A stretch of 64,000 nt of DNA from Acidobacteriota bacterium (GTDB lineage: Bacteria > Acidobacteriota > Blastocatellia > Pyrinomonadales > Pyrinomonadaceae): the NCBI GenBank assembly GCA_003222895.1, contig QHXI01000060.1, positions 1 through 64,000 of the forward strand, written 5' to 3'. The translations under genes and the position numbers were made by a program. The notes beneath the pieces are model-generated. The model was not told the DNA's origin. It worked only from the letters and a program-made list of their open reading frames with translations, and made no database searches. Shown one piece after another: positions 3,066 through 12,898 of the stretch; within the stretch, counting starts at the first letter, position 1; every line of letters begins with the position of its first letter.

Positions 3066-5507
3066 TCAATGCTCCTCGGTCGCCGGTGTGCTGATCGATC
3101 CAATGATCTCCTGATACTCAGGATCATTTCGCAACGAATCCCAATTCGTATCTCTTTCAAACCAGCGTTTGTTTTCGTTGCCTAACGCGATTGCGCGGCG
3201 CAACCATTGCAAAGCCTCGTCGCGCTCGCCTTCCATCGCGTACGCCGACGCCAACCAATACGCAACGTCGTGATCGGTGTCTGCGGTCTTTCTTACTTCG
3301 TCAGTCAATTGCGCGCGCGCCTCTTCATTGAATCCGAGCGCGCTTAAGAACGTCGCGTAAATGGGACGAATGCCGTCGAGCTGGGGCTGTTGCTCCAGCA
3401 CTTGTTCGAGAATTTCCGCGGCCTTCACGTGTTCGCCGTGATAGTAAAGCGCGCGTGCGCGGAATGTTTTGATCAGCGGATGGTCCGGTTCGACCGCTGC
3501 GCCCCTGTCGAGTTCCGCCAAAGCTTCGTCATATTTCCCCTGGCTCGTAAAAATTCGCGCGCGATTATAAGCAGCGACGACCTGCTCTGCCGGATTCAAA
3601 CGGACCATGCGCTCGAAAGATCGCAAGGCTCGTTCCGGATCGCCGTCGAGCCGCGCCAGCACGCCGCTGACGAAATGCACGCCTACATCATTCGGATTTT
3701 CGCGGCGAAGTTGCTCAGCCTCTGCCCGCGCCTTCTGCTTTTCACCCTGCGCAAGATGAATGAAGACCATGTGCATGCGCGCTTCCAACAGATGCGGATC
3801 GATCGCGAGCGCTTGATCGAAAGCTTCCTGCGCATTCGCATAATCGTCGGTCTCGCCGAATCCTTTTCTGACGCGATTCGCGTACGCGCTGCCTAAACCA
3901 CAATGCGCAAGTGCAAACGAAGGATCTATATAAGTCGCGCGCTGAAAATGTTCGATCGCTTCGTCGACGTCTTTGCGCGCGATCGTGTGATAAATGTAGC
4001 GGCCCAGCGAATCGCGGCCACGCAGGTATTCCTCGTAGGCCTCGGCGTTCGCAGTCTTGCCTTGTTCGAGACGATCTTTTTCGTCCGGCGAAAGCTCGAG
4101 CCGCAGCCCGTCGCAAATCTCCTGCGTGATCGTATCCTGAACATTAATGATGTCGGTCGCGTCGGCGTCAATGCGATCGCTCCAGAGCAAATCTCCCGAG
4201 TCGACATCGACCAGTTGCGCGGTGACACGAATCCGATCGCCGGCGCGCAGGAAGCCCGCCGATAAAACCGCCGAAACGCTCATCTCGCGACCGGCCTGCC
4301 GCGGATCGACTTGCGTGTTTTGATACCTGACGATTTCAGAGGAAGGACGCACGACGAGCGAACGCACACGGGCGAGTTCAGTAATGACCGCATCGGCCAA
4401 AGAGAATTCGTAAAAGCTGGACTGCGGATCGTTACCGACGTTTTTGAATGGAAGAATCGCGACGCTCTTGCGTTCGCGATCTCCCATACTGGTCGCCGGC
4501 GTTTCGTGAACGGGGCGCTCAAAGCTCGACTCGCGCGGTTGTGAAGGTCGATCACTGGTGACATTGCGCAACCAACGCAACGCGCGCCCCATGCGGCCGC
4601 TGCCGGCCATGTGTTTCGGCGCAACCGGCGTGATGCGCTCGTAGTTTTGCGGTCCACCGGTTTCGATTTCGCGCAACACGGCGCGCAGATTGTCGCGCAG
4701 CTCGCCAACTTTCTGATATCGGTCCTTCGGATTTTTCGCGAGCGATCGATCGAGAATCACTTGCAATTGCCACGGAGCGCCGCCCGGTCGCGCTTCATTC
4801 AGCGGCCGCGGATCTTCATGAAGCACCGCGTGCCGCACATCGATGCTCGTCTTTCCCTGAAACGGCCAGATGCCGGTCAGCATCTCGTAAAGCAAAACGC
4901 CTGTCGAAAAAATATCGGCGCGCGCATCGACGCGTTCGCCGCGGGCCTGCTCAGGCGCAGCATAGGTCGCTGTGCCATACGGAATTCCAACTTCGGTGAG
5001 ATCCGTGTGATGGATTCCCGCCGGGCTCATGCTTTCATCAACCAATTTCGCCAGACCGAAATCGAGGATCTTGACCTGGCCTGAAGGCGTGACCATCACG
5101 TTGCCGGCCTTGATGTCACGATGAATGATGCCGCGTTCATGCGCCGCGGCCAGCGCATCGGCAACTTGAATTGTGATCGAAAGCGCACTGGCGAAATCGA
5201 GCGGCCGTCCGTTCACCAAGTCGCGGACGTTCTTGCCATCGACGAACTGCATCGCGATGTAATGCACGCCGTCGATTTCGTTCAAATCAAAAATCGTGCA
5301 GATGTTCGGGTGATCGAGCGCCGAAGCCAGTCGGGCTTCGCGTTCGAATCGTTTAAGGTTGGCTTCTTTGACGGTTAGTTCCGGCGGAAGGACTTTGATG
5401 ACAACGGGGCGGCCAAGCTTTGTGTCGGTCGCTTTATAAACTGTTCCTTGACCACCGGCGCCAATCTTCTCGAGGATTCGGTAATTCCCAAGTTTCGCGC
5501 CGATCAT
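3066..5507 (-). CDS. Ser/Thr protein kinase with TolB-like and TPR domains
   Basis: This 813-residue protein opens with a Hanks-type kinase domain (about 8-275). It has the glycine loop GAGGQG at 16-21, Lys38, HRDIKAGN at 129-136, DFG at 149-151 and APEQ at 184-187, so it should be active. A linker leads to a TolB-like N-terminal domain at about 345-465, the module often found beside kinase and cyclase domains, starting with VAILPFKNV. TPR repeats fill about 480-800. No membrane helix is evident between the kinase and sensor parts, so the protein is probably cytoplasmic. Such fusions are common in Acidobacteriota and are presumed signalling scaffolds; the substrate is unknown. Confidence 0.9.
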   Translation of the reverse strand: MIGAKLGNYRILEKIGAGGQGTVYKATDTKLGRPVVIKVLPPELTVKEANLKRFEREARLASALDHPNICTIFDLNEIDGVHYIAMQFVDGKNVRDLVNGRPLDFASALSITIQVADALAAAHERGIIHRDIKAGNVMVTPSGQVKILDFGLAKLVDESMSPAGIHHTDLTEVGIPYGTATYAAPEQARGERVDARADIFSTGVLLYEMLTGIWPFQGKTSIDVRHAVLHEDPRPLNEARPGGAPWQLQVILDRSLAKNPKDRYQKVGELRDNLRAVLREIETGGPQNYERITPVAPKHMAGSGRMGRALRWLRNVTSDRPSQPRESSFERPVHETPATSMGDRERKSVAILPFKNVGNDPQSSFYEFSLADAVITELARVRSLVVRPSSEIVRYQNTQVDPRQAGREMSVSAVLSAGFLRAGDRIRVTAQLVDVDSGDLLWSDRIDADATDIINVQDTITQEICDGLRLELSPDEKDRLEQGKTANAEAYEEYLRGRDSLGRYIYHTIARKDVDEAIEHFQRATYIDPSFALAHCGLGSAYANRVRKGFGETDDYANAQEAFDQALAIDPHLLEARMHMVFIHLAQGEKQKARAEAEQLRRENPNDVGVHFVSGVLARLDGDPERALRSFERMVRLNPAEQVVAAYNRARIFTSQGKYDEALAELDRGAAVEPDHPLIKTFRARALYYHGEHVKAAEILEQVLEQQPQLDGIRPIYATFLSALGFNEEARAQLTDEVRKTADTDHDVAYWLASAYAMEGERDEALQWLRRAIALGNENKRWFERDTNWDSLRNDPEYQEIIGSISTPATEEH

Positions 5508-7013: not shown

Positions 7014-7579
7014 GAATTCCTCAACTCTGTTCAGCTACGCTGGACTGGTTATGACAACCGGTGCTTCACCGTCGTTGTGAGCAGACGAGTCAGGTCCTTG
7101 GAGACTTGTCGACAGACTCTTCCCCGGCCTGGCTCGTTCCTGCCAACGACGACGCTTTACCTGAGGGGGGTTTGCGCATGTACGCAACAAGTTCCTCAAT
7201 CGGCGTGTTTCATCTGGTTATTGACGCGGCGAATCCCACGTCTACCTTGTGCGGATTGAGAGTAGTGCCAATCGTCATCGATCGTCCCGCCACAAGCGAG
7301 ACTCTATACCTAACATCGACGAAACCCGCCGGCTCTGTCTTGTGCCGGGAGTGCCGCAGTATCGACCAACGAGAAAGAGGCGACGACCCGTCTGCGTAGA
7401 GGAAACAGGTGTCTCTTCACGATTGGAAATTTTTTGTTGACTTCGTTGCTTCGCGGGACTAATCTGCGCGCACCTCGCAATGCCTTATACCTAAAACTGA
7501 CTCAGTCGCGTCTTCGCACTTTGTACGTGCGACGCTAAACATTTCTTTGTGTAACTCAAGATATTGGAGGTGATCTTCC
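7014..7579. other. 566-base gap without a recognised gene
   Basis: Several overlapping plus-strand frames are open here but have skewed composition and no recognisable domain, so I treat them as chance frames. The gap precedes the accessory gene at 7580, whose near-perfect ribosome site (GGAGGTGATC) lies at its right end. No repeat of the window's common families was seen. Confidence 0.45.
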
Positions 7580-8548
7580 ATGGCGAATGGTTTGAATGGG
7601 CAAACTACCCTGTGGGCCAAATTCACAAGTCTCATTATCGATAATGACGGCGAAGTAAGATGGACCTTCTATCAGGGGCTGGCGATCGTTGCCGGTATCG
7701 GCATCCTGATTGTCTATTCCGCGAAGAGCCCGGCATTTCCGCAGTCCCTCGCTGTAGGTCTGCTCGTCGCCGGCGCATCTTTGGCCTGTGGCATCTTTAT
7801 CGGCTTTCTTTTCGGCATTCCGCGCACGGTCCAGAAGCCGCAGGCTGCGGACGGCACTACAGCCTCTCAAAGCGATTCAGGTGTCAACACCAATCTCGAA
7901 CAGATCTCCGATTGGCTGACCAAGATAATCGTCGGCGTCGGATTGGTGCAGTTGTCCAAGATGCCCCCGAGAATTAAAGCACTTGTCGAATACATGTCAT
8001 CGGCTTTCGCAGATCAGAAAGTCTCGCCGGCAACTGTTCTGACGATCATGGCTTATTTCGCCATTTTTGGTTTTCTCTTGGGCTATTTGTGGACCAGGAT
8101 CTATCTAACGCGCGAATTCAATCGCGTTGAGAGACAAACGCGTGATCGACCTGAATTCTTTGAAGGACTAATACATGCCTTTCTGTATCAGCCGATGCCA
8201 ACCGGATTCAAGTATGCGATCGCTAAAGCGGACGAATATAAGCAGCGCTTCGGGATGGACAATTGGCGCGTCTGGTTTTACCTGGCCTGCGCGTATGCTC
8301 AACAGTACACTTTCGAGAAGCGGGCGCCAAAGCCTGATGAGCAGAAGAAGAACGCTGCGCGTGACAATTCGTTAGATGCAGTCCAACACGCATTGCAACT
8401 CAATCAGGATGCCAAGCCCATCATAAGAGGCCTATGGGATCCCGCACAGGCCAAGCCAACAGAAAATGATCTGCAAGTGTTTTATGAGGATAAGGACCCC
8501 GGGTTCATGGCGGTCCTGGGCAATCCTGGAGAGACGTACCCGCCGTAA
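7580..8548 (+). CDS. membrane protein of unknown function
   Basis: This 322-residue protein has three clear membrane helices, at about residues 30-48, 55-80 and 150-173. An extra hydrophilic segment sits between the second and third helices. The C-terminal soluble region of about 150 residues (WRVWFYLACAYAQQ onward) looks helical and may be TPR-like. An unusually strong ribosome site, GGAGGTGATC, lies upstream of the ATG at 7580. It opens an accessory patch with an M15 peptidase, a GH75-like protein and a second membrane protein, all on the same strand but separated by gaps. I do not recognise the family. Confidence 0.75.
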   Translation: MANGLNGQTTLWAKFTSLIIDNDGEVRWTFYQGLAIVAGIGILIVYSAKSPAFPQSLAVGLLVAGASLACGIFIGFLFGIPRTVQKPQAADGTTASQSDSGVNTNLEQISDWLTKIIVGVGLVQLSKMPPRIKALVEYMSSAFADQKVSPATVLTIMAYFAIFGFLLGYLWTRIYLTREFNRVERQTRDRPEFFEGLIHAFLYQPMPTGFKYAIAKADEYKQRFGMDNWRVWFYLACAYAQQYTFEKRAPKPDEQKKNAARDNSLDAVQHALQLNQDAKPIIRGLWDPAQAKPTENDLQVFYEDKDPGFMAVLGNPGETYPP

Positions 8549-8985
8549 ACCAGGGAGCAGGCAGGGCGATCGAAAACGCGCTGCCCGCGGCAATCATGAA
8601 TCACAACATGGAGTTGGCAGCCCTATAGTGTTCACCCGCTCGCGCGCTGATTTAGTTGCGCCGGCAATTGCTTATCTACCTTCGTACGAGACGGCAGAAG
8701 CCCAGTTCCGATACATTCCTTCTGGAGAATTCTATTGACTTCAAAGTTGAGCAGGAATATGCTTCGCCCACCTCGCAAGCGCACTTACTGAATCCGAGTT
8801 CAACTAACTCGAAACCATTAATAGGAACTCGAGATTCTTATCAGGCTGGTTCCCGGAGCCTGCGACCAAACCCGCATCCTCTTCGCGCCAGCCGAGATTG
8901 GCAGTCACCCTTTGACGGCTTCAATGGTCGACAAGTTACGGAGGGTGTAACTCTCTGAAAACATGCATTAGAAAGGAGCCTCAGA
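8549..8985. other. 437-base gap carrying a gene relic
   Basis: Apart from the M28-peptidase tail relic at 8632-8697, no gene or repeat is recognised. Open frames at 8466-8738 and 8656-8958 overlap other genes or the relic and show no domain. The right end supplies the AAAGGAG ribosome site of the M15 peptidase gene. Confidence 0.5.
8632..8697 (-). pseudogene. relic of an M28 peptidase C-terminus
   Basis: On the minus strand this segment reads LPSRTKVDKQLPAQLNQR followed by ASG and a stop. The intact M28 peptidase at 11240-12898 ends LPARPKVDKQLPAQLNQR and stop, so 16 of 18 residues agree. At DNA level 28 consecutive bases are identical (8646-8673 versus 11245-11272), with about 46 of 52 overall. 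Similarity is lost beyond about 8697, so only the 3' end of a paralogue or duplicated copy remains. Both copies lie on the same strand and bracket the M15/GH75/PLD-like genes. Confidence 0.85.
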
Positions 8986-9501
8986 ATGAACTTCCCTGAA
9001 TTCAAGCCTGCGGACAAGCAGTCGGACCTCGAGGCGTTTTACTCAAAACACATTCTCGGTTCAGATGGAAGACCGACAGCGGAATGGCAAAGCGAACACT
9101 TGACTAGAATCACGCCCGCCTATCCTTTAACTTTGGCTTTCCCTCCGGGTACCGAAGTAACGCGGGTTCTCTGCCATAAAAAGGTAGCCGATAGTCTGAC
9201 AAGCGTATTCGCAAGCATACTTGCGCACTTCGGCTCGCTGGACGAAGTTCGCAAAGCTCGCATGCATCTTTTTGGTGGCTGCTTCAATTTTCGGCGCATC
9301 ACTGGAGGCACGCGCCTAAGTGATCATGCGTGGGGAATCGCTATCGACATAGATCCCGACAAGAACCCGTTCAACAAAAAGCATGACCCATCAAAAGGAA
9401 TGATGCCCTTGGAGGTCGTCAAGATATTCGAGGATGCGGGTTGGCGGTGGGGCGGGCACTTCAAAAAGCCTGACTGTATGCACTTTCAGGCAACGGCCTA
9501 G
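8986..9501 (+). CDS. M15-family peptidase (D-Ala-D-Ala carboxypeptidase / endolysin-like)
   Basis: The 171-residue protein is a single M15 peptidase domain. The zinc-site motif SDHAWGIAIDID puts His114 and Asp121 (or Asp123) as ligands. The C-terminal WRWGGHF...DCMHFQ segment supplies the catalytic acid (Asp163) and the last zinc ligand, His166. These enzymes cut peptide bonds in peptidoglycan stems or cross-links. Length and compactness fit phage-type endolysins or VanY-like domains. There is no signal peptide, which is odd for a cell-wall enzyme. The start is fixed by AAAGGAG upstream. It sits before a GH75-like hydrolase, suggesting a cell-wall or polysaccharide-degrading set. Confidence 0.85.
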   Translation: MNFPEFKPADKQSDLEAFYSKHILGSDGRPTAEWQSEHLTRITPAYPLTLAFPPGTEVTRVLCHKKVADSLTSVFASILAHFGSLDEVRKARMHLFGGCFNFRRITGGTRLSDHAWGIAIDIDPDKNPFNKKHDPSKGMMPLEVVKIFEDAGWRWGGHFKKPDCMHFQATA

Positions 9502-9679
9502 CCAAGCGCATGTTCCTAAAATGTCTCCATGGTCGGCCTTTCTTAATGATGGAGAATGGCTGCAACGAGGGTTTGTGTCTGGCTCTCAAGAAGAACAATA
9601 GCCACGCTCATTTTTGAATCAAGCCGACCGGGTGACCCAGCGCCGAGCCGAACAAGTTAACTTCAGAAAGGAGGCTTTG

Positions 9680-10342
9680 ATGAACTGCGACAAGGAAACT
9701 GTAGCTACAATAGGTGGCACGAAGGTCTTCAGACTTAAGGGCAAGAGCGCCTTGTTCTTTCGCGCGGATATTGAGATTGATGCTGATGGTTCCCCTCGCG
9801 CTTACCATCCCACCAACGACAAGATCGCTCTTGATTTCAAGGCGAACGGTTTTCCGTTTGCGGTTGTTCATGTTAATGGAAAACCACATATACAGGGCCC
9901 AAACGATCCTGCCCCCGGTTTCTTTGTTTCGATGACCTCGCTGGAGGACACAAGTAAAGAGAAGACCGACCCCCGACGATACGTAGACTCTGTGGAGATT
10001 CCGTACATAGTGCTTCCTTCAGGGCTGATCGGAAACGGCAAGGCGAAGCTCGGAGATTTTGCGGCAGTTATCAATAAGAAGAACAACAAATCATCGTTTG
10101 CAATTTTTGCGGATGTAGGGCCAAAAAAGAAACTCGGAGAGGGTTCGATCGCTCTGGCGGCCGCTTTGGAGGTCAAAAAGAATCCAAAGACCGGAGGCCC
10201 TGCGGCCGATCTGATTTACGTTGTATTTCCCGGTTCTGGAAACGGGAAGCCAAGATCTCTCGACGAAGTAAACAGCAATGGTCAGGTGGCGTTTGCGAAT
10301 TTTGGCGGCATGGAGCAGGTGAATGCTTGCTTTGGTGCATAA
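9680..10342 (+). CDS. GH75-like chitosanase domain protein
   Basis: I choose the ATG at 9680 because AAAGGAGG stands directly before it, giving 220 residues. The sequence carries features of glycoside hydrolase family 75, the fungal chitosanase family: FRADIEIDADGSPRAYHP near the N-terminus, a QGPNDPAPGFFVS segment, YVDSVEIPYIVLP, and the catalytic block ADVGPKKKLGEGSIALA. In that block Asp145 and Glu154 are nine residues apart, the same spacing as the catalytic pair described for the Aspergillus enzyme. No signal peptide is visible, unlike fungal enzymes. Activity on chitosan or another amino-sugar polymer is an inference. Confidence 0.68.
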   Translation: MNCDKETVATIGGTKVFRLKGKSALFFRADIEIDADGSPRAYHPTNDKIALDFKANGFPFAVVHVNGKPHIQGPNDPAPGFFVSMTSLEDTSKEKTDPRRYVDSVEIPYIVLPSGLIGNGKAKLGDFAAVINKKNNKSSFAIFADVGPKKKLGEGSIALAAALEVKKNPKTGGPAADLIYVVFPGSGNGKPRSLDEVNSNGQVAFANFGGMEQVNACFGA

Positions 10343-10438
10343 CAAATGAGCTGGTTCCCAGAGCGATTATCGGCGCACACTTCTTGATCCAGCCTTTCGA
10401 CGACTAAACAAATGGTCGTCGCCTCGGAGAGATTAGAT

Positions 10439-11164
10439 ATGAACTTCCTAAGGTATCTGGATGCAGAGAAGGTTGGATTAGCTCTTGCTCTCGTCGCGTT
10501 AGGTGTGGGCTTATGGCATCTGCGAGAGATTAAGGAAATCTCCGGATCGATATCTACCCGATATGTCGATACCTTCCCTAGGAACTTGCCCTCCATCATT
10601 GATCTAATGGACCGAACCACTGGCAGCCTTTGGATCGTTACCGATACTCCTGCCTACGGCCATTTCTCGAACCCCGGTGGGTTTGAAAAATATAAAGTTA
10701 AACTAGAAGGCTTGGCCTCACCGGATAGTAAGATAAGTATTAGGCTGCTCACCTATGATGATCCAACCAGGATGTCTCACGCCAAACAGCAATTCTGCAC
10801 AACAGACATTAATCAGCTTCGGGAGAGAGACAGCTATAAAACTTACTTCGCCTATTGGAGGAACAAACCCCAGCCCGAGACGATGGACAATTTTTATAAT
10901 CCGATCCACGAGAACAATGATAACTTTCGGCGGGAACTTGCTCAGTACAACATTGAGATTAGCGAAACCAAAAACCCATTACCGGTTTTTCTTTGGATGC
11001 GTGACGAGCACGAGGCGATCTTTTCTTTTTACAACTACGGCCAAAGCCCTCGTGAAGTATCATTTCGCACTAATGATCAAAAGCTGCTTGCAGTACTCAA
11101 GGAAATGGCAGAGGTGGCCTTCAAAGACAGCAGTAGATATGAACCTCAGCCGAAGGCAAAATAA
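10439..11164 (+). CDS. membrane-anchored protein of unknown function, PLD-like region
   Basis: The ATG at 10439 follows GGAGAG and gives 241 residues. One membrane helix lies at about residues 10-27 (VGLALALVALGVGLWHL). The rest is a soluble domain: a segment SLWIVTDTPAYG, then ISIRLLTYDD, and near the end MRDEHEAIFSFYNYG. This strand pattern resembles phospholipase-D-like folds that have lost the HKD motifs, but no HKD is present, so the comparison is weak. It is the last gene of the accessory patch and ends about 75 bases before the M28 peptidase gene on the other strand. Function is unknown. Confidence 0.72.
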   Translation: MNFLRYLDAEKVGLALALVALGVGLWHLREIKEISGSISTRYVDTFPRNLPSIIDLMDRTTGSLWIVTDTPAYGHFSNPGGFEKYKVKLEGLASPDSKISIRLLTYDDPTRMSHAKQQFCTTDINQLRERDSYKTYFAYWRNKPQPETMDNFYNPIHENNDNFRRELAQYNIEISETKNPLPVFLWMRDEHEAIFSFYNYGQSPREVSFRTNDQKLLAVLKEMAEVAFKDSSRYEPQPKAK

Positions 11165-11239: not shown

Positions 11240-12898
11240 CTATCGCTGATTTAGTTGCGCCGGCAATTGCTTGTCGACTTTCGGACGAGCAGGCAGGTCG
11301 GCGATAGTCCACAGAGTCATGTAGACCGTGCGCGTGACTTTCTCCATCTTGTCATAATCGATCTTCTGCGGCTCGTCGCCGGGGCGGTGATAGTCTTCGT
11401 GCACGCCGTCAAAATAAAAAATGATCGGGATGCCTTTGCGCGCATAGTTGTAATGATCGCTACGGAAAAAGAAATGATTCAAATCGTTCGGATCGTCGTA
11501 GCGATAGTCAAACGTCAGATTGAGGAACGATTTGTTCACCGTTTCGCTTAAGTTACCTAGTTCAGTGCTCATCATCTTCGATCCGATCACGTAAACGGTG
11601 TTCGGCCCAGACAGATCTTTGTTGAGTTGATTCGTGTCGCCTTCTTTTTTGCTCCGGCCAATCATGTCGATGTTCAGCTGCGTGACGATCTTATTGAGCG
11701 GGATCGTGGGGTAATCGGTAAAGTAACGCGAGCCCCACAGACCTTTCTCTTCGCCGCAATGCCACACAAACAAGACCGATCGTTTCGGTCGTCGCTTCGC
11801 GTGCGAGATCGCCTCGGCCATTCCCAGCAGAGCGGTAGTCCCTGAGCCGTCGTCATCGGCGCCGTTGCATATCGGATCGGCAGTTCCCGGCGCGCAGATG
11901 CCTATGTGATCGTAATGCGCGCCCACCGCGACGTATTCATTTTTCAAAACCGGATCGCTGCCTTCCCAAACGGCGACTATATTTTGAGTGGCCGGATGTT
12001 CGCTCTTCACCGCCACGGTAATCGTAACTTTCTTGTCCGCGCTAAGATCGAAAGCCGGAACGTCCTGGCCGTTCGCGAGCGCGACCGCATCGACTTTTTC
12101 GCCATCAAACAGGGCCTTCGCCATTTTCACGGACATCACGATGTTGGGAACGGGCGGCGTGCTCGGTTGGGAAGTGAACTTTTCGACGACCGAACGAGCG
12201 GGCTGCATCGCGCGCTGCTTAAGCTGTTCCCAACTTAGCAACGCGTTCGCATCCGGGATTACCAGCACGCCTTTGGCGCCGTGCTGTTGCGCGTAAACGC
12301 CGGGGCTGCTCCAATCGGTTCCCATCTGGCCAGCGAGGTCTGCGCGTGTCACTCCGCGCGGAAATCCGCTGCCCACAACCACCATGACCTTGTCTTTCAC
12401 GTCGACGCCTTTGTACGAATCAAGGTTCTTCGACTTGATCACCCAGCCATTGCCGGCAAACACAAACGGTCCGGTCAGTGTCGCCGCGACCGAGTTCGGC
12501 AGGAAGTCTTCGCCGACAACAAAATCTTTTCCGTTAATCTGCGCCGTTGTCTTGGTCGCGTCGACCGCCTCGCGCCGCAGGGCGATCTTTTGAAAGAAAG
12601 TTCCCTCGTCGCCCATGGGCTTAAAGCCCCAGCGGCCAAGATTCATCGCGATGAATTTCGCGGTCGTGTCCAACCCGCGCGAGGGTGTGTCGCGTCCTTC
12701 CATTTCATCAGACGCGATGAACGTAAGATAGCTGCGCAACAGTGCCGCGGTTATCGCGTCGACGCCGCGCGCTTTGATAATGACTACGGATGTATGCGCG
12801 CTGGCGCGAGCCGCTGGGCGTTGCGCAAGAGTCGTCGGCAGCGCGAGCGAAAGCGCCGCCAGAACGATCAGCGAATAGAGTTTTAGTGTCTTAAGCAT
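11240..12898 (-). CDS. secreted M28 family aminopeptidase
   Basis: This 552-residue protein begins with a signal peptide (hydrophobic stretch at about 8-24, ending near TLAQ). A PA-type insert domain (about 130-270) precedes the M28 zinc peptidase domain. Metal and catalytic motifs are complete: GAHYDHIG, NGADDDGSGT, CGEEKGLWGS, NIDMIGR and a late FRSDHYNYARKGIP...HEDYHRPGDE. It should remove N-terminal residues from peptides outside the cytoplasm. It follows pntB with a 38-base gap and may be co-transcribed. A relic of a second copy's C-terminus lies at 8632-8697. Confidence 0.9.
   Translation of the reverse strand: MLKTLKLYSLIVLAALSLALPTTLAQRPAARASAHTSVVIIKARGVDAITAALLRSYLTFIASDEMEGRDTPSRGLDTTAKFIAMNLGRWGFKPMGDEGTFFQKIALRREAVDATKTTAQINGKDFVVGEDFLPNSVAATLTGPFVFAGNGWVIKSKNLDSYKGVDVKDKVMVVVGSGFPRGVTRADLAGQMGTDWSSPGVYAQQHGAKGVLVIPDANALLSWEQLKQRAMQPARSVVEKFTSQPSTPPVPNIVMSVKMAKALFDGEKVDAVALANGQDVPAFDLSADKKVTITVAVKSEHPATQNIVAVWEGSDPVLKNEYVAVGAHYDHIGICAPGTADPICNGADDDGSGTTALLGMAEAISHAKRRPKRSVLFVWHCGEEKGLWGSRYFTDYPTIPLNKIVTQLNIDMIGRSKKEGDTNQLNKDLSGPNTVYVIGSKMMSTELGNLSETVNKSFLNLTFDYRYDDPNDLNHFFFRSDHYNYARKGIPIIFYFDGVHEDYHRPGDEPQKIDYDKMEKVTRTVYMTLWTIADLPARPKVDKQLPAQLNQR

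What the first reader, a model, noticed from the sequence alone, without database searches (positions are those of the whole stretch)
7580..11164. Accessory patch of membrane proteins plus two wall/polysaccharide hydrolases without signals
Four plus-strand genes with strong Shine-Dalgarno sites (GGAGGTGATC, AAAGGAG, AAAGGAGG, GGAGAG) encode a three-helix membrane protein, an M15 peptidase, a GH75-like chitosanase and a membrane-anchored PLD-like protein. Neither hydrolase has a signal peptide. Cell-wall hydrolases retained inside the cell next to membrane proteins suggest lysis, effector delivery or defence rather than nutrition.
Basis: partly seen in the sequence, partly recalled or inferred. 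Interest (0 to 1): 0.6.

Follow-up and report, generated by a model that had tools for sequence, protein, structure and literature searches.

The report
Shared RNA leader on accessory operon
A small inserted operon of two unsecreted wall- or polysaccharide-cutting enzymes and a membrane protein carries the same promoter and RNA hairpin that stand in front of many immune-type genes in related soil bacteria, which points to a shared, undescribed control element.

Summary
The four ORFs, their ribosome-binding sites and the absent export signals are confirmed; the PLD-like assignment of gene 4 is not. They are not one unit. Gene 1 is the older neighbour of a peptidase (M28) gene. M15, GH75 and gene 4 form a block inserted beside it, flanked by a 53-bp copy of the M28 3' end. 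No other of 97 related genomes has the set.

The unexpected result lies upstream. The inserted operon starts with a sigma-70-like promoter and a leader carrying a three-step hairpin (8841-8896); a second copy (10346-10397) precedes gene 4. A covariance model of this hairpin, blind to promoters, found 16 further copies in the family. All 16 sit behind a TTGAC-type promoter, and 10 of 16 precede genes with TIR, SIR2, caspase, NACHT, patatin or trypsin/TPR-S domains. CHAT-CHASE2 genes carry it too. The hairpin shows compensatory changes, has no U-tract, matches nothing in Rfam and is nearly confined to two genera.

Best reading: an undescribed 5'-leader RNA shared by a patchy conflict-gene regulon, with M15 (endolysin-like) and GH75 (closest solved relative: a soil-virus chitosanase) as cytosolic lytic enzymes in it. 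That the hairpin regulates, and that these enzymes defend, is inference.

The parts
7437..7480 (+). Promoter block of gene 1: TTGACT-17-TAATCT then CGCGCACCTCGCAA; no hairpin of the family follows
7580..8548 (+). Gene 1: membrane protein with three TM peaks; resident neighbour of M28 in relatives; homologues in G042 and G067 have a response-regulator-like C-terminal domain instead
8645..8697 (.). Diverged copy (89%) of the 3' end of the M28 gene: left boundary of the inserted block
8735..8763 (+). Promoter of the inserted operon: TTGACT-17-TATGCT
8764..8985 (+). 5' leader; 8733-8894 is 78% identical to a leader in G005 that drives other genes
8841..8896 (+). Leader hairpin, first copy: GGCUGG/CCAGCC outer stem, GAG/CUC and UGCG/CGCA inner stems, conserved internal loops
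8986..9501 (+). M15 peptidase, endolysin-like, no signal peptide; SDHAWGIAIDID and MHF motifs kept
9680..10342 (+). GH75 chitosanase-like, no signal peptide; acidic active-site residues D34, D36, D145, E154
10346..10397 (+). Leader hairpin, second copy, between GH75 and gene 4, without its own promoter
10439..11164 (+). Gene 4: one N-terminal TM segment plus a domain of unknown fold (ATG 10412 is the alternative start)
11244..11296 (.). Native copy of the repeat inside the 3' end of the M28 gene: right boundary
11240..12898 (-). M28 peptidase gene whose 3' side is the insertion hotspot

Best explanation
The M15-GH75-gene4 block is an acquired operon inserted between gene 1 and the M28 gene at a genus-level hotspot. 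Its mRNA begins with a 5' leader that folds into a conserved three-step hairpin. The same promoter plus hairpin heads a patchy set of operons in two genera of Blastocatellia, rich in conflict/immune modules (TIR, SIR2, CHAT-CHASE2, caspase, NACHT, patatin, trypsin/TPR-S, MGS+8xMP). The hairpin most likely works as RNA, as a shared control site: a trans-acting protein or a small ligand binds its conserved internal loops and sets the output of these operons together. Here the output is two cytosolic lytic enzymes plus a membrane protein, which could act on the cell's own wall or on foreign polymers once the membrane is breached. Shown: the insertion, the conserved hairpin at a fixed place behind a promoter-like sequence, its base-pair conservation, the company it keeps. 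Inferred: transcription start, regulation by the hairpin, its partner, and a defence role for M15 and GH75.
For: Insertion: direct repeat, empty arrangement in G006 and G003. Leader: promoter-blind model R2 found 26 copies in 12 of 119 family genomes, 16 of them new; all 16 have a TTGAC promoter ending 12-24 nt before the hairpin, and over all 36 hairpins 30 have one within 110 nt, shuffled mean 0.7, maximum 4. Structure: 90% of cells paired against 32-50% slid, 6 of 13 pairs with double changes, 0 of 500 shuffles as high. Company: 10 of 16 new copies precede TIR, SIR2, NACHT, patatin, caspase or trypsin/TPR-S genes against 0 of 24 other window proteins, p 9e-6, or 1.7e-4 with orthologues collapsed. 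GH75 of G004 (74% identical) also lies in a hairpin-headed operon with other partners. A copy in another family (G075), in no training set, has promoter, hairpin and a cargo gene like that at G000:C19.
Against: No expression data. The background set is 24 genes of one window, not a genome tally. 16 of 28 copies at E<=1e-3 precede genes that are not recognisably conflict genes. The four window proteins have no PADLOC hit. RNAalifold alone supports only the outer six pairs, and alignment A8 was fitted to the model. Some copies do not fold better than shuffles (G006b, G038). Gene 1 has the promoter block but no hairpin. A plain consensus scan of the patch shows no excess of promoters.
Confidence: 0.55

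Rival explanations
1. The hairpin is a processive-antitermination or anti-silencing signal, working like the leaders that recruit LoaP or RfaH: it lets RNA polymerase read through long, acquired operons, without sensing anything about infection.
For: 5'-proximal position, conserved loop letters, acquired and often long cargo (for example 913 aa at G000:C19), copies inside operons before later genes.
Against: No NusG paralogue was searched for. Copies also head short cargo (58 aa and 165 aa ORFs in G051).
Confidence: 0.25
2. The leader block is mainly a recombination or mobility unit: hairpins mark cassette borders, cassettes swap by recombination within the leader, and any regulatory role is secondary.
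For: Same leader with different cargo at the same M28 hotspot (G000, G005, G004); hairpins at module borders inside operons (window 10346; G004:C801 and C5); direct repeat at the block ends.
Against: No integrase was seen among the window proteins given to Pfam; the repeat at the block ends is M28 coding sequence, not the hairpin; the hairpin keeps a fixed distance to a promoter in 16 of 16 new copies.
Confidence: 0.12
3. M15 and GH75 are stray viral genes: a relic of phage lysis and auxiliary genes with no present role beyond that.
For: M15 matches endolysins in 182 phage records (the 15 listed at 34-37.5% identity) and PHROG endolysin families; the closest solved GH75 is the soil-virus chitosanase V-Csn.
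Against: No GH75 relative in 50,697 phage records and none confirmed in viral contigs from single-query peptide patterns; no phage genes seen beside the block; active-site acids intact; GH75 sits in hairpin-headed operons in two genomes with different partners.
Confidence: 0.2
4. The first reader's four-gene lysis or effector-delivery module.
For: Endolysin-like and polysaccharide-cutting enzymes without signals next to membrane proteins.
Against: The four genes do not travel together; gene 1 is resident and has its own promoter block; no phage or secretion genes among 24 other window proteins.
Confidence: 0.08

Closest known systems
Soil-virus chitosanase V-Csn (GH75; PDB 7TVL-7TVP; PMC9485262, passages read)
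   Same: Whole-length match E 1e-34; acids D34, D36, D148, E157 present as D34, D36, D145, E154
   Different: Here in a bacterial chromosome behind a leader shared with immune-type genes; activity untested
M15 L-Ala-D-Glu endolysins of phages
   Same: Length and domain; phrog_17001 at 5e-31, 182 phage records
   Different: No holin or other phage genes seen beside it; nearest relative is bacterial, G096, 58%
Conflict systems of multicellular prokaryotes (Kaur et al. 2020 PMC7159879 and 2021 PMC8195603; start of abstracts and term searches of the main text read)
   Same: Same effector and sensor domains: CHAT, TIR, caspase, trypsin, TPR-S (that TPR-S and others come from this work is recalled)
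   Different: The words promoter and untranslated do not occur in either text and leader not in the 2021 text; here a shared leader links unrelated effectors
LoaP- or RfaH-type leader signals (recalled; search listing only)
   Same: Conserved hairpin near the 5' end of accessory operons
   Different: Partner protein not identified; no sequence likeness tested
Rfam structured leaders and riboswitches
   Same: Conserved 5' hairpin with conserved internal loops
   Different: No Rfam match at the hairpins

Membership tests
M15 peptidase, endolysin type | Peptidase_M15_4 domain with Zn-ligand motifs | tested here: met
   Pfam 4e-18; SDHAWGIAIDID and MHF present; motif roles recalled
M15 peptidase, endolysin type | Phage lysis cassette (holin and other phage genes) beside it | tested here: not met
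   No phage gene among 24 other window proteins scanned
GH75 chitosanase | GH75 fold family and catalytic acids | tested here: met
   Pfam 1e-8, V-Csn 1e-34, D145 and E154 kept
GH75 chitosanase | Activity on chitosan | not testable with these tools
   needs the enzyme
Phospholipase D superfamily (gene 4) | HxKx4D motif or PLD domain match | tested here: not met
   No motif, no Pfam, NCBIfam or PADLOC match
Phospholipase D superfamily (gene 4) | PLD fold | tested here: inconclusive
   AlphaFold2 single sequence, pLDDT 43
Known structured RNA (Rfam 15) | Covariance-model match | tested here: not met
   No match at the hairpins of the window or of ten other loci
Intrinsic terminator | Stem followed by a U-tract | tested here: not met
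   0 of 35 hairpins have 7 or more T in the 12-nt tail
Cis-regulatory 5' leader RNA | Conserved structure at a fixed place between promoter and gene | tested here: met
   transcription itself not shown
Cis-regulatory 5' leader RNA | Changes expression in response to a signal | not testable with these tools
   needs a reporter assay
LoaP or RfaH antitermination signal | Dedicated NusG paralogue co-occurring with the element | not tested
Known anti-phage defence system | Match to PADLOC models | tested here: not met
   0 of 4 window proteins at E<=1; 6 of 10 proteins behind other hairpins match at E<=1e-3

The most novel reading that the evidence does not exclude
A single class of 5'-leader RNA, unknown to Rfam, coordinates a whole arsenal of otherwise unrelated immune and cell-death effectors (TIR, SIR2, CHAT, caspase, NACHT, patatin, MGS-8xMP, and here endolysin-like plus chitosanase lytic enzymes) in a lineage of soil Acidobacteriota, by sensing an infection signal or by recruiting an anti-silencing factor. 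It would be an RNA-level immune regulon, and the hairpin would be a search key for new effectors.
Probability: 0.4. Interest if true: 0.82.

Novelty: new variant of a known kind. Interest (0 to 1): 0.62.

Why it matters
Bacterial immune genes are usually found by guilt of neighbourhood; how they are switched on is mostly open. A conserved leader RNA in front of many unrelated effector types would give a handle on common control, would let one list such an arsenal by one RNA search (including effectors with no known domain, such as the operon here), and would make the trigger directly testable with reporters.

Tried and rejected
Four-gene unit: rejected. The genes have different distributions in 97 genomes (GH75 in 6, gene 1 in 6, M15 in 12 of which only G096 is close besides the window, gene 4 in 4, the own genome counted each time).

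GH75 in viral contigs and phages: nothing. Core of the hairpin in viral contigs: nothing. Promoter pattern in GTDB genomes: 20 stretches, 5 from Acidobacteriota records by title; the other 15, from Proteobacteria and others, I took as chance or convergence and did not follow up. Most R1 hits at E 0.001-0.05 were left aside; those at G004:C5, G005:C23:626233, G002:C12:79905 and G075 were later confirmed by R2 or R3. The consensus promoter scan of the patch gave no excess (3 found, 3.6 expected), so the promoter claim rests on its recurrence before hairpins. Gene 4 structure: model unusable, no fold search made. Terminator and known-Rfam readings of the hairpin: rejected. Literature: the listings of searches showed no paper on this element by title or start of abstract, and 102 returned 0 papers; this covers open-licence PMC only.
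Full report
What is there. The window is G000:C74:1-64000 of a fragmented 4.8-Mb genome. The four ORFs exist with the stated SD sites. M15 and GH75 are above the Pfam cut-offs; proteins 1 and 4 match no Pfam family at cut-off. Neither hydrolase has a hydrophobic N-terminus, also not from an earlier start. Gene 4 probably starts at 10439. Its PLD likeness could not be confirmed.

The enzymes. GH75 matches the soil-virus chitosanase V-Csn at E 1e-34. The residues D148 and E157, whose change cut activity five-fold and nearly to nothing in that work (PMC9485262, passages read), correspond to D145 and E154 here, and D34 and D36 are kept. An active GH75 is therefore likely. M15 resembles phage L-Ala-D-Glu endolysins along its length: 182 phage records, the 15 listed at 34-37.5% identity, PHROG endolysin family at 5e-31. 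No GH75 relative was found in phage records or confirmed in viral contigs.

Not one unit. In 97 relatives GH75 is in 6 genomes, gene 1 in 6, M15 in 12 (only G096 close, 58%), gene 4 in 4, the own genome counted each time; no second genome has all four. In G006 the order kinase-MFS-gene1-M28 is kept with nothing between gene 1 and M28. In G003 thioredoxin and M28 abut, an empty site. In the window a 53-bp, 89% identical copy of the M28 3' end stands at 8645-8697 and the native one at 11244-11296; its core occurs only at these two places in the own genome. So M15-GH75-gene4 was inserted as a block, with a direct repeat as a single crossover or a site-specific event would leave. In five of the seven genus genomes (G000, G001, G004, G005, G006) the M28 side carries cassettes with the promoter block or hairpin; G003 is empty and G002 has other genes without it. 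In G004 the locus is split over contigs C801 and C5; that they adjoin is inference.

The leader. Upstream of M15 lies TTGACT-17-TATGCT followed by a CGCCCACCTCGCAA block; gene 1 has a similar block. The M15 leader is 78% identical over 164 bp to one in G005 that drives other genes. From nine leaders a sequence model (R1) and from eleven hairpins a structure model (R2) were built. R2 knows nothing of promoters. In 119 family genomes it gave 26 hits at E<=0.01 in 12 genomes: 7 of 7 genus-1 genomes, 4 of genus 9, 1 of another genus. Sixteen of the hits were new. All 16 have a TTGAC-N16-18 promoter ending 12-24 nt before the hairpin. Over 36 hairpins, 30 have one within 110 nt; block-shuffled upstream sequence gives 0.7 on average and 4 at most. 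A second window copy was found at 10346-10397, between GH75 and gene 4, by a model not trained on it. R3, built from 30 rows, gave 28 hits at E<=1e-3 in 32 chosen genomes: genus 1 7 of 7, genus 9 4 of 9, other genera 1 of 16; most of these were its training rows. In 162 class genomes it added one site, G075 of another family, not in training, with the promoter and a cargo gene resembling that behind G000:C19.

Structure. In 35 aligned copies 90% of cells form standard pairs against 32-50% when the partner is slid; 6 of 13 pairs show changes on both sides (shuffles: mean 2.3, 0 of 500 as high). The alignment was made with the model, so this leans towards it; RNAalifold on the same rows predicts only the outer six pairs, three with double changes. 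Of the first eleven copies folded singly most show the nested hairpin; G006b and G038 do not fold better than shuffles. 0 of 35 have a U-tract. No Rfam match lies at a hairpin.

Company. Genes behind the 16 new hits, by Pfam: TIR twice (one followed by nSTAND1), trypsin with TPR-S twice, SIR2, NACHT, patatin twice, caspase twice: 10 of 16. The other six are a CRP-like regulator, DUF4440, a CxxCxxCC membrane protein (below cut-off) and three first genes without families. CHAT-CHASE2 stands behind two of the earlier leaders, MGS and 8xMP behind a third. At E<=1e-3, 12 of 28 sites are followed by such domains, MGS not counted. None of 24 other window proteins has one at cut-off; p 9e-6, or 1.7e-4 with orthologues collapsed to 7 of 13. 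PADLOC matched 6 of 10 of the proteins behind hairpins at E<=1e-3 and none of the four window proteins. Which domains count as conflict-type is my choice from knowledge of the field. The 24-gene background is small.

How it probably works. Shown: a conserved hairpin just inside the presumed transcript start, behind a housekeeping-type promoter sequence, over many unrelated accessory operons, among them M15-GH75-gene4. Inferred: it is read as RNA, and a protein or ligand sets expression. A NusG-type antitermination role fits about as well as a sensing role and was not tested. The lytic enzymes have no export route of their own; the membrane proteins of the patch might provide one, or the enzymes act after membrane failure. 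That last step is speculation.

Against known things. The enzymes are ordinary members of known families by sequence. The regulon's effector domains are known from work on conflict systems in multicellular prokaryotes, where term searches found no mention of promoters or untranslated regions. What seems new is the shared leader. I found no description of it in Rfam 15 or in the listings of four literature searches, which do not cover subscription journals or preprints.

Noticed in passing
7580-8548; L066:7971-9065; L067:6837-7982: Gene 1 belongs to a modular membrane family: shared TM region with the motif NLEQISDWLTK, followed by different C-termini, among them a response-regulator-like domain in G042 and G067.
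   Followed up: partly
L184:3247-5985 (G000:C19) and L201 (G075:C267): A 913-aa protein without Pfam or PADLOC hits stands behind the hairpin, and a similar protein stands behind the hairpin in another family: a candidate new effector.
   Followed up: partly
L141 (G000:C45, leader-like promoter near 3653, minus strand): A weak leader-like promoter (R1 E 0.012) precedes a 321-aa ORF and a lysozyme-like ORF; the likeness to DUF2971 and GH25 is recalled, not searched.
   Followed up: no
8805-8840 and the leaders in L056, L081, L080, L140: Several leaders carry repeats of AACTCGAAAC between promoter and hairpin, which may form a variable upstream stem.
   Followed up: no
L053:1443-2276: In G001 the gene between gene 1 and M28 is a 277-aa signal-peptide-like protein with a weak RHS-repeat match.
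   Followed up: no
L054 and L031 (G004): A 5' hairpin, GH75, a second hairpin, an MGS-like gene, an 8xMP gene and a third hairpin appear to lie in one row up to M28, across a contig break.
   Followed up: partly
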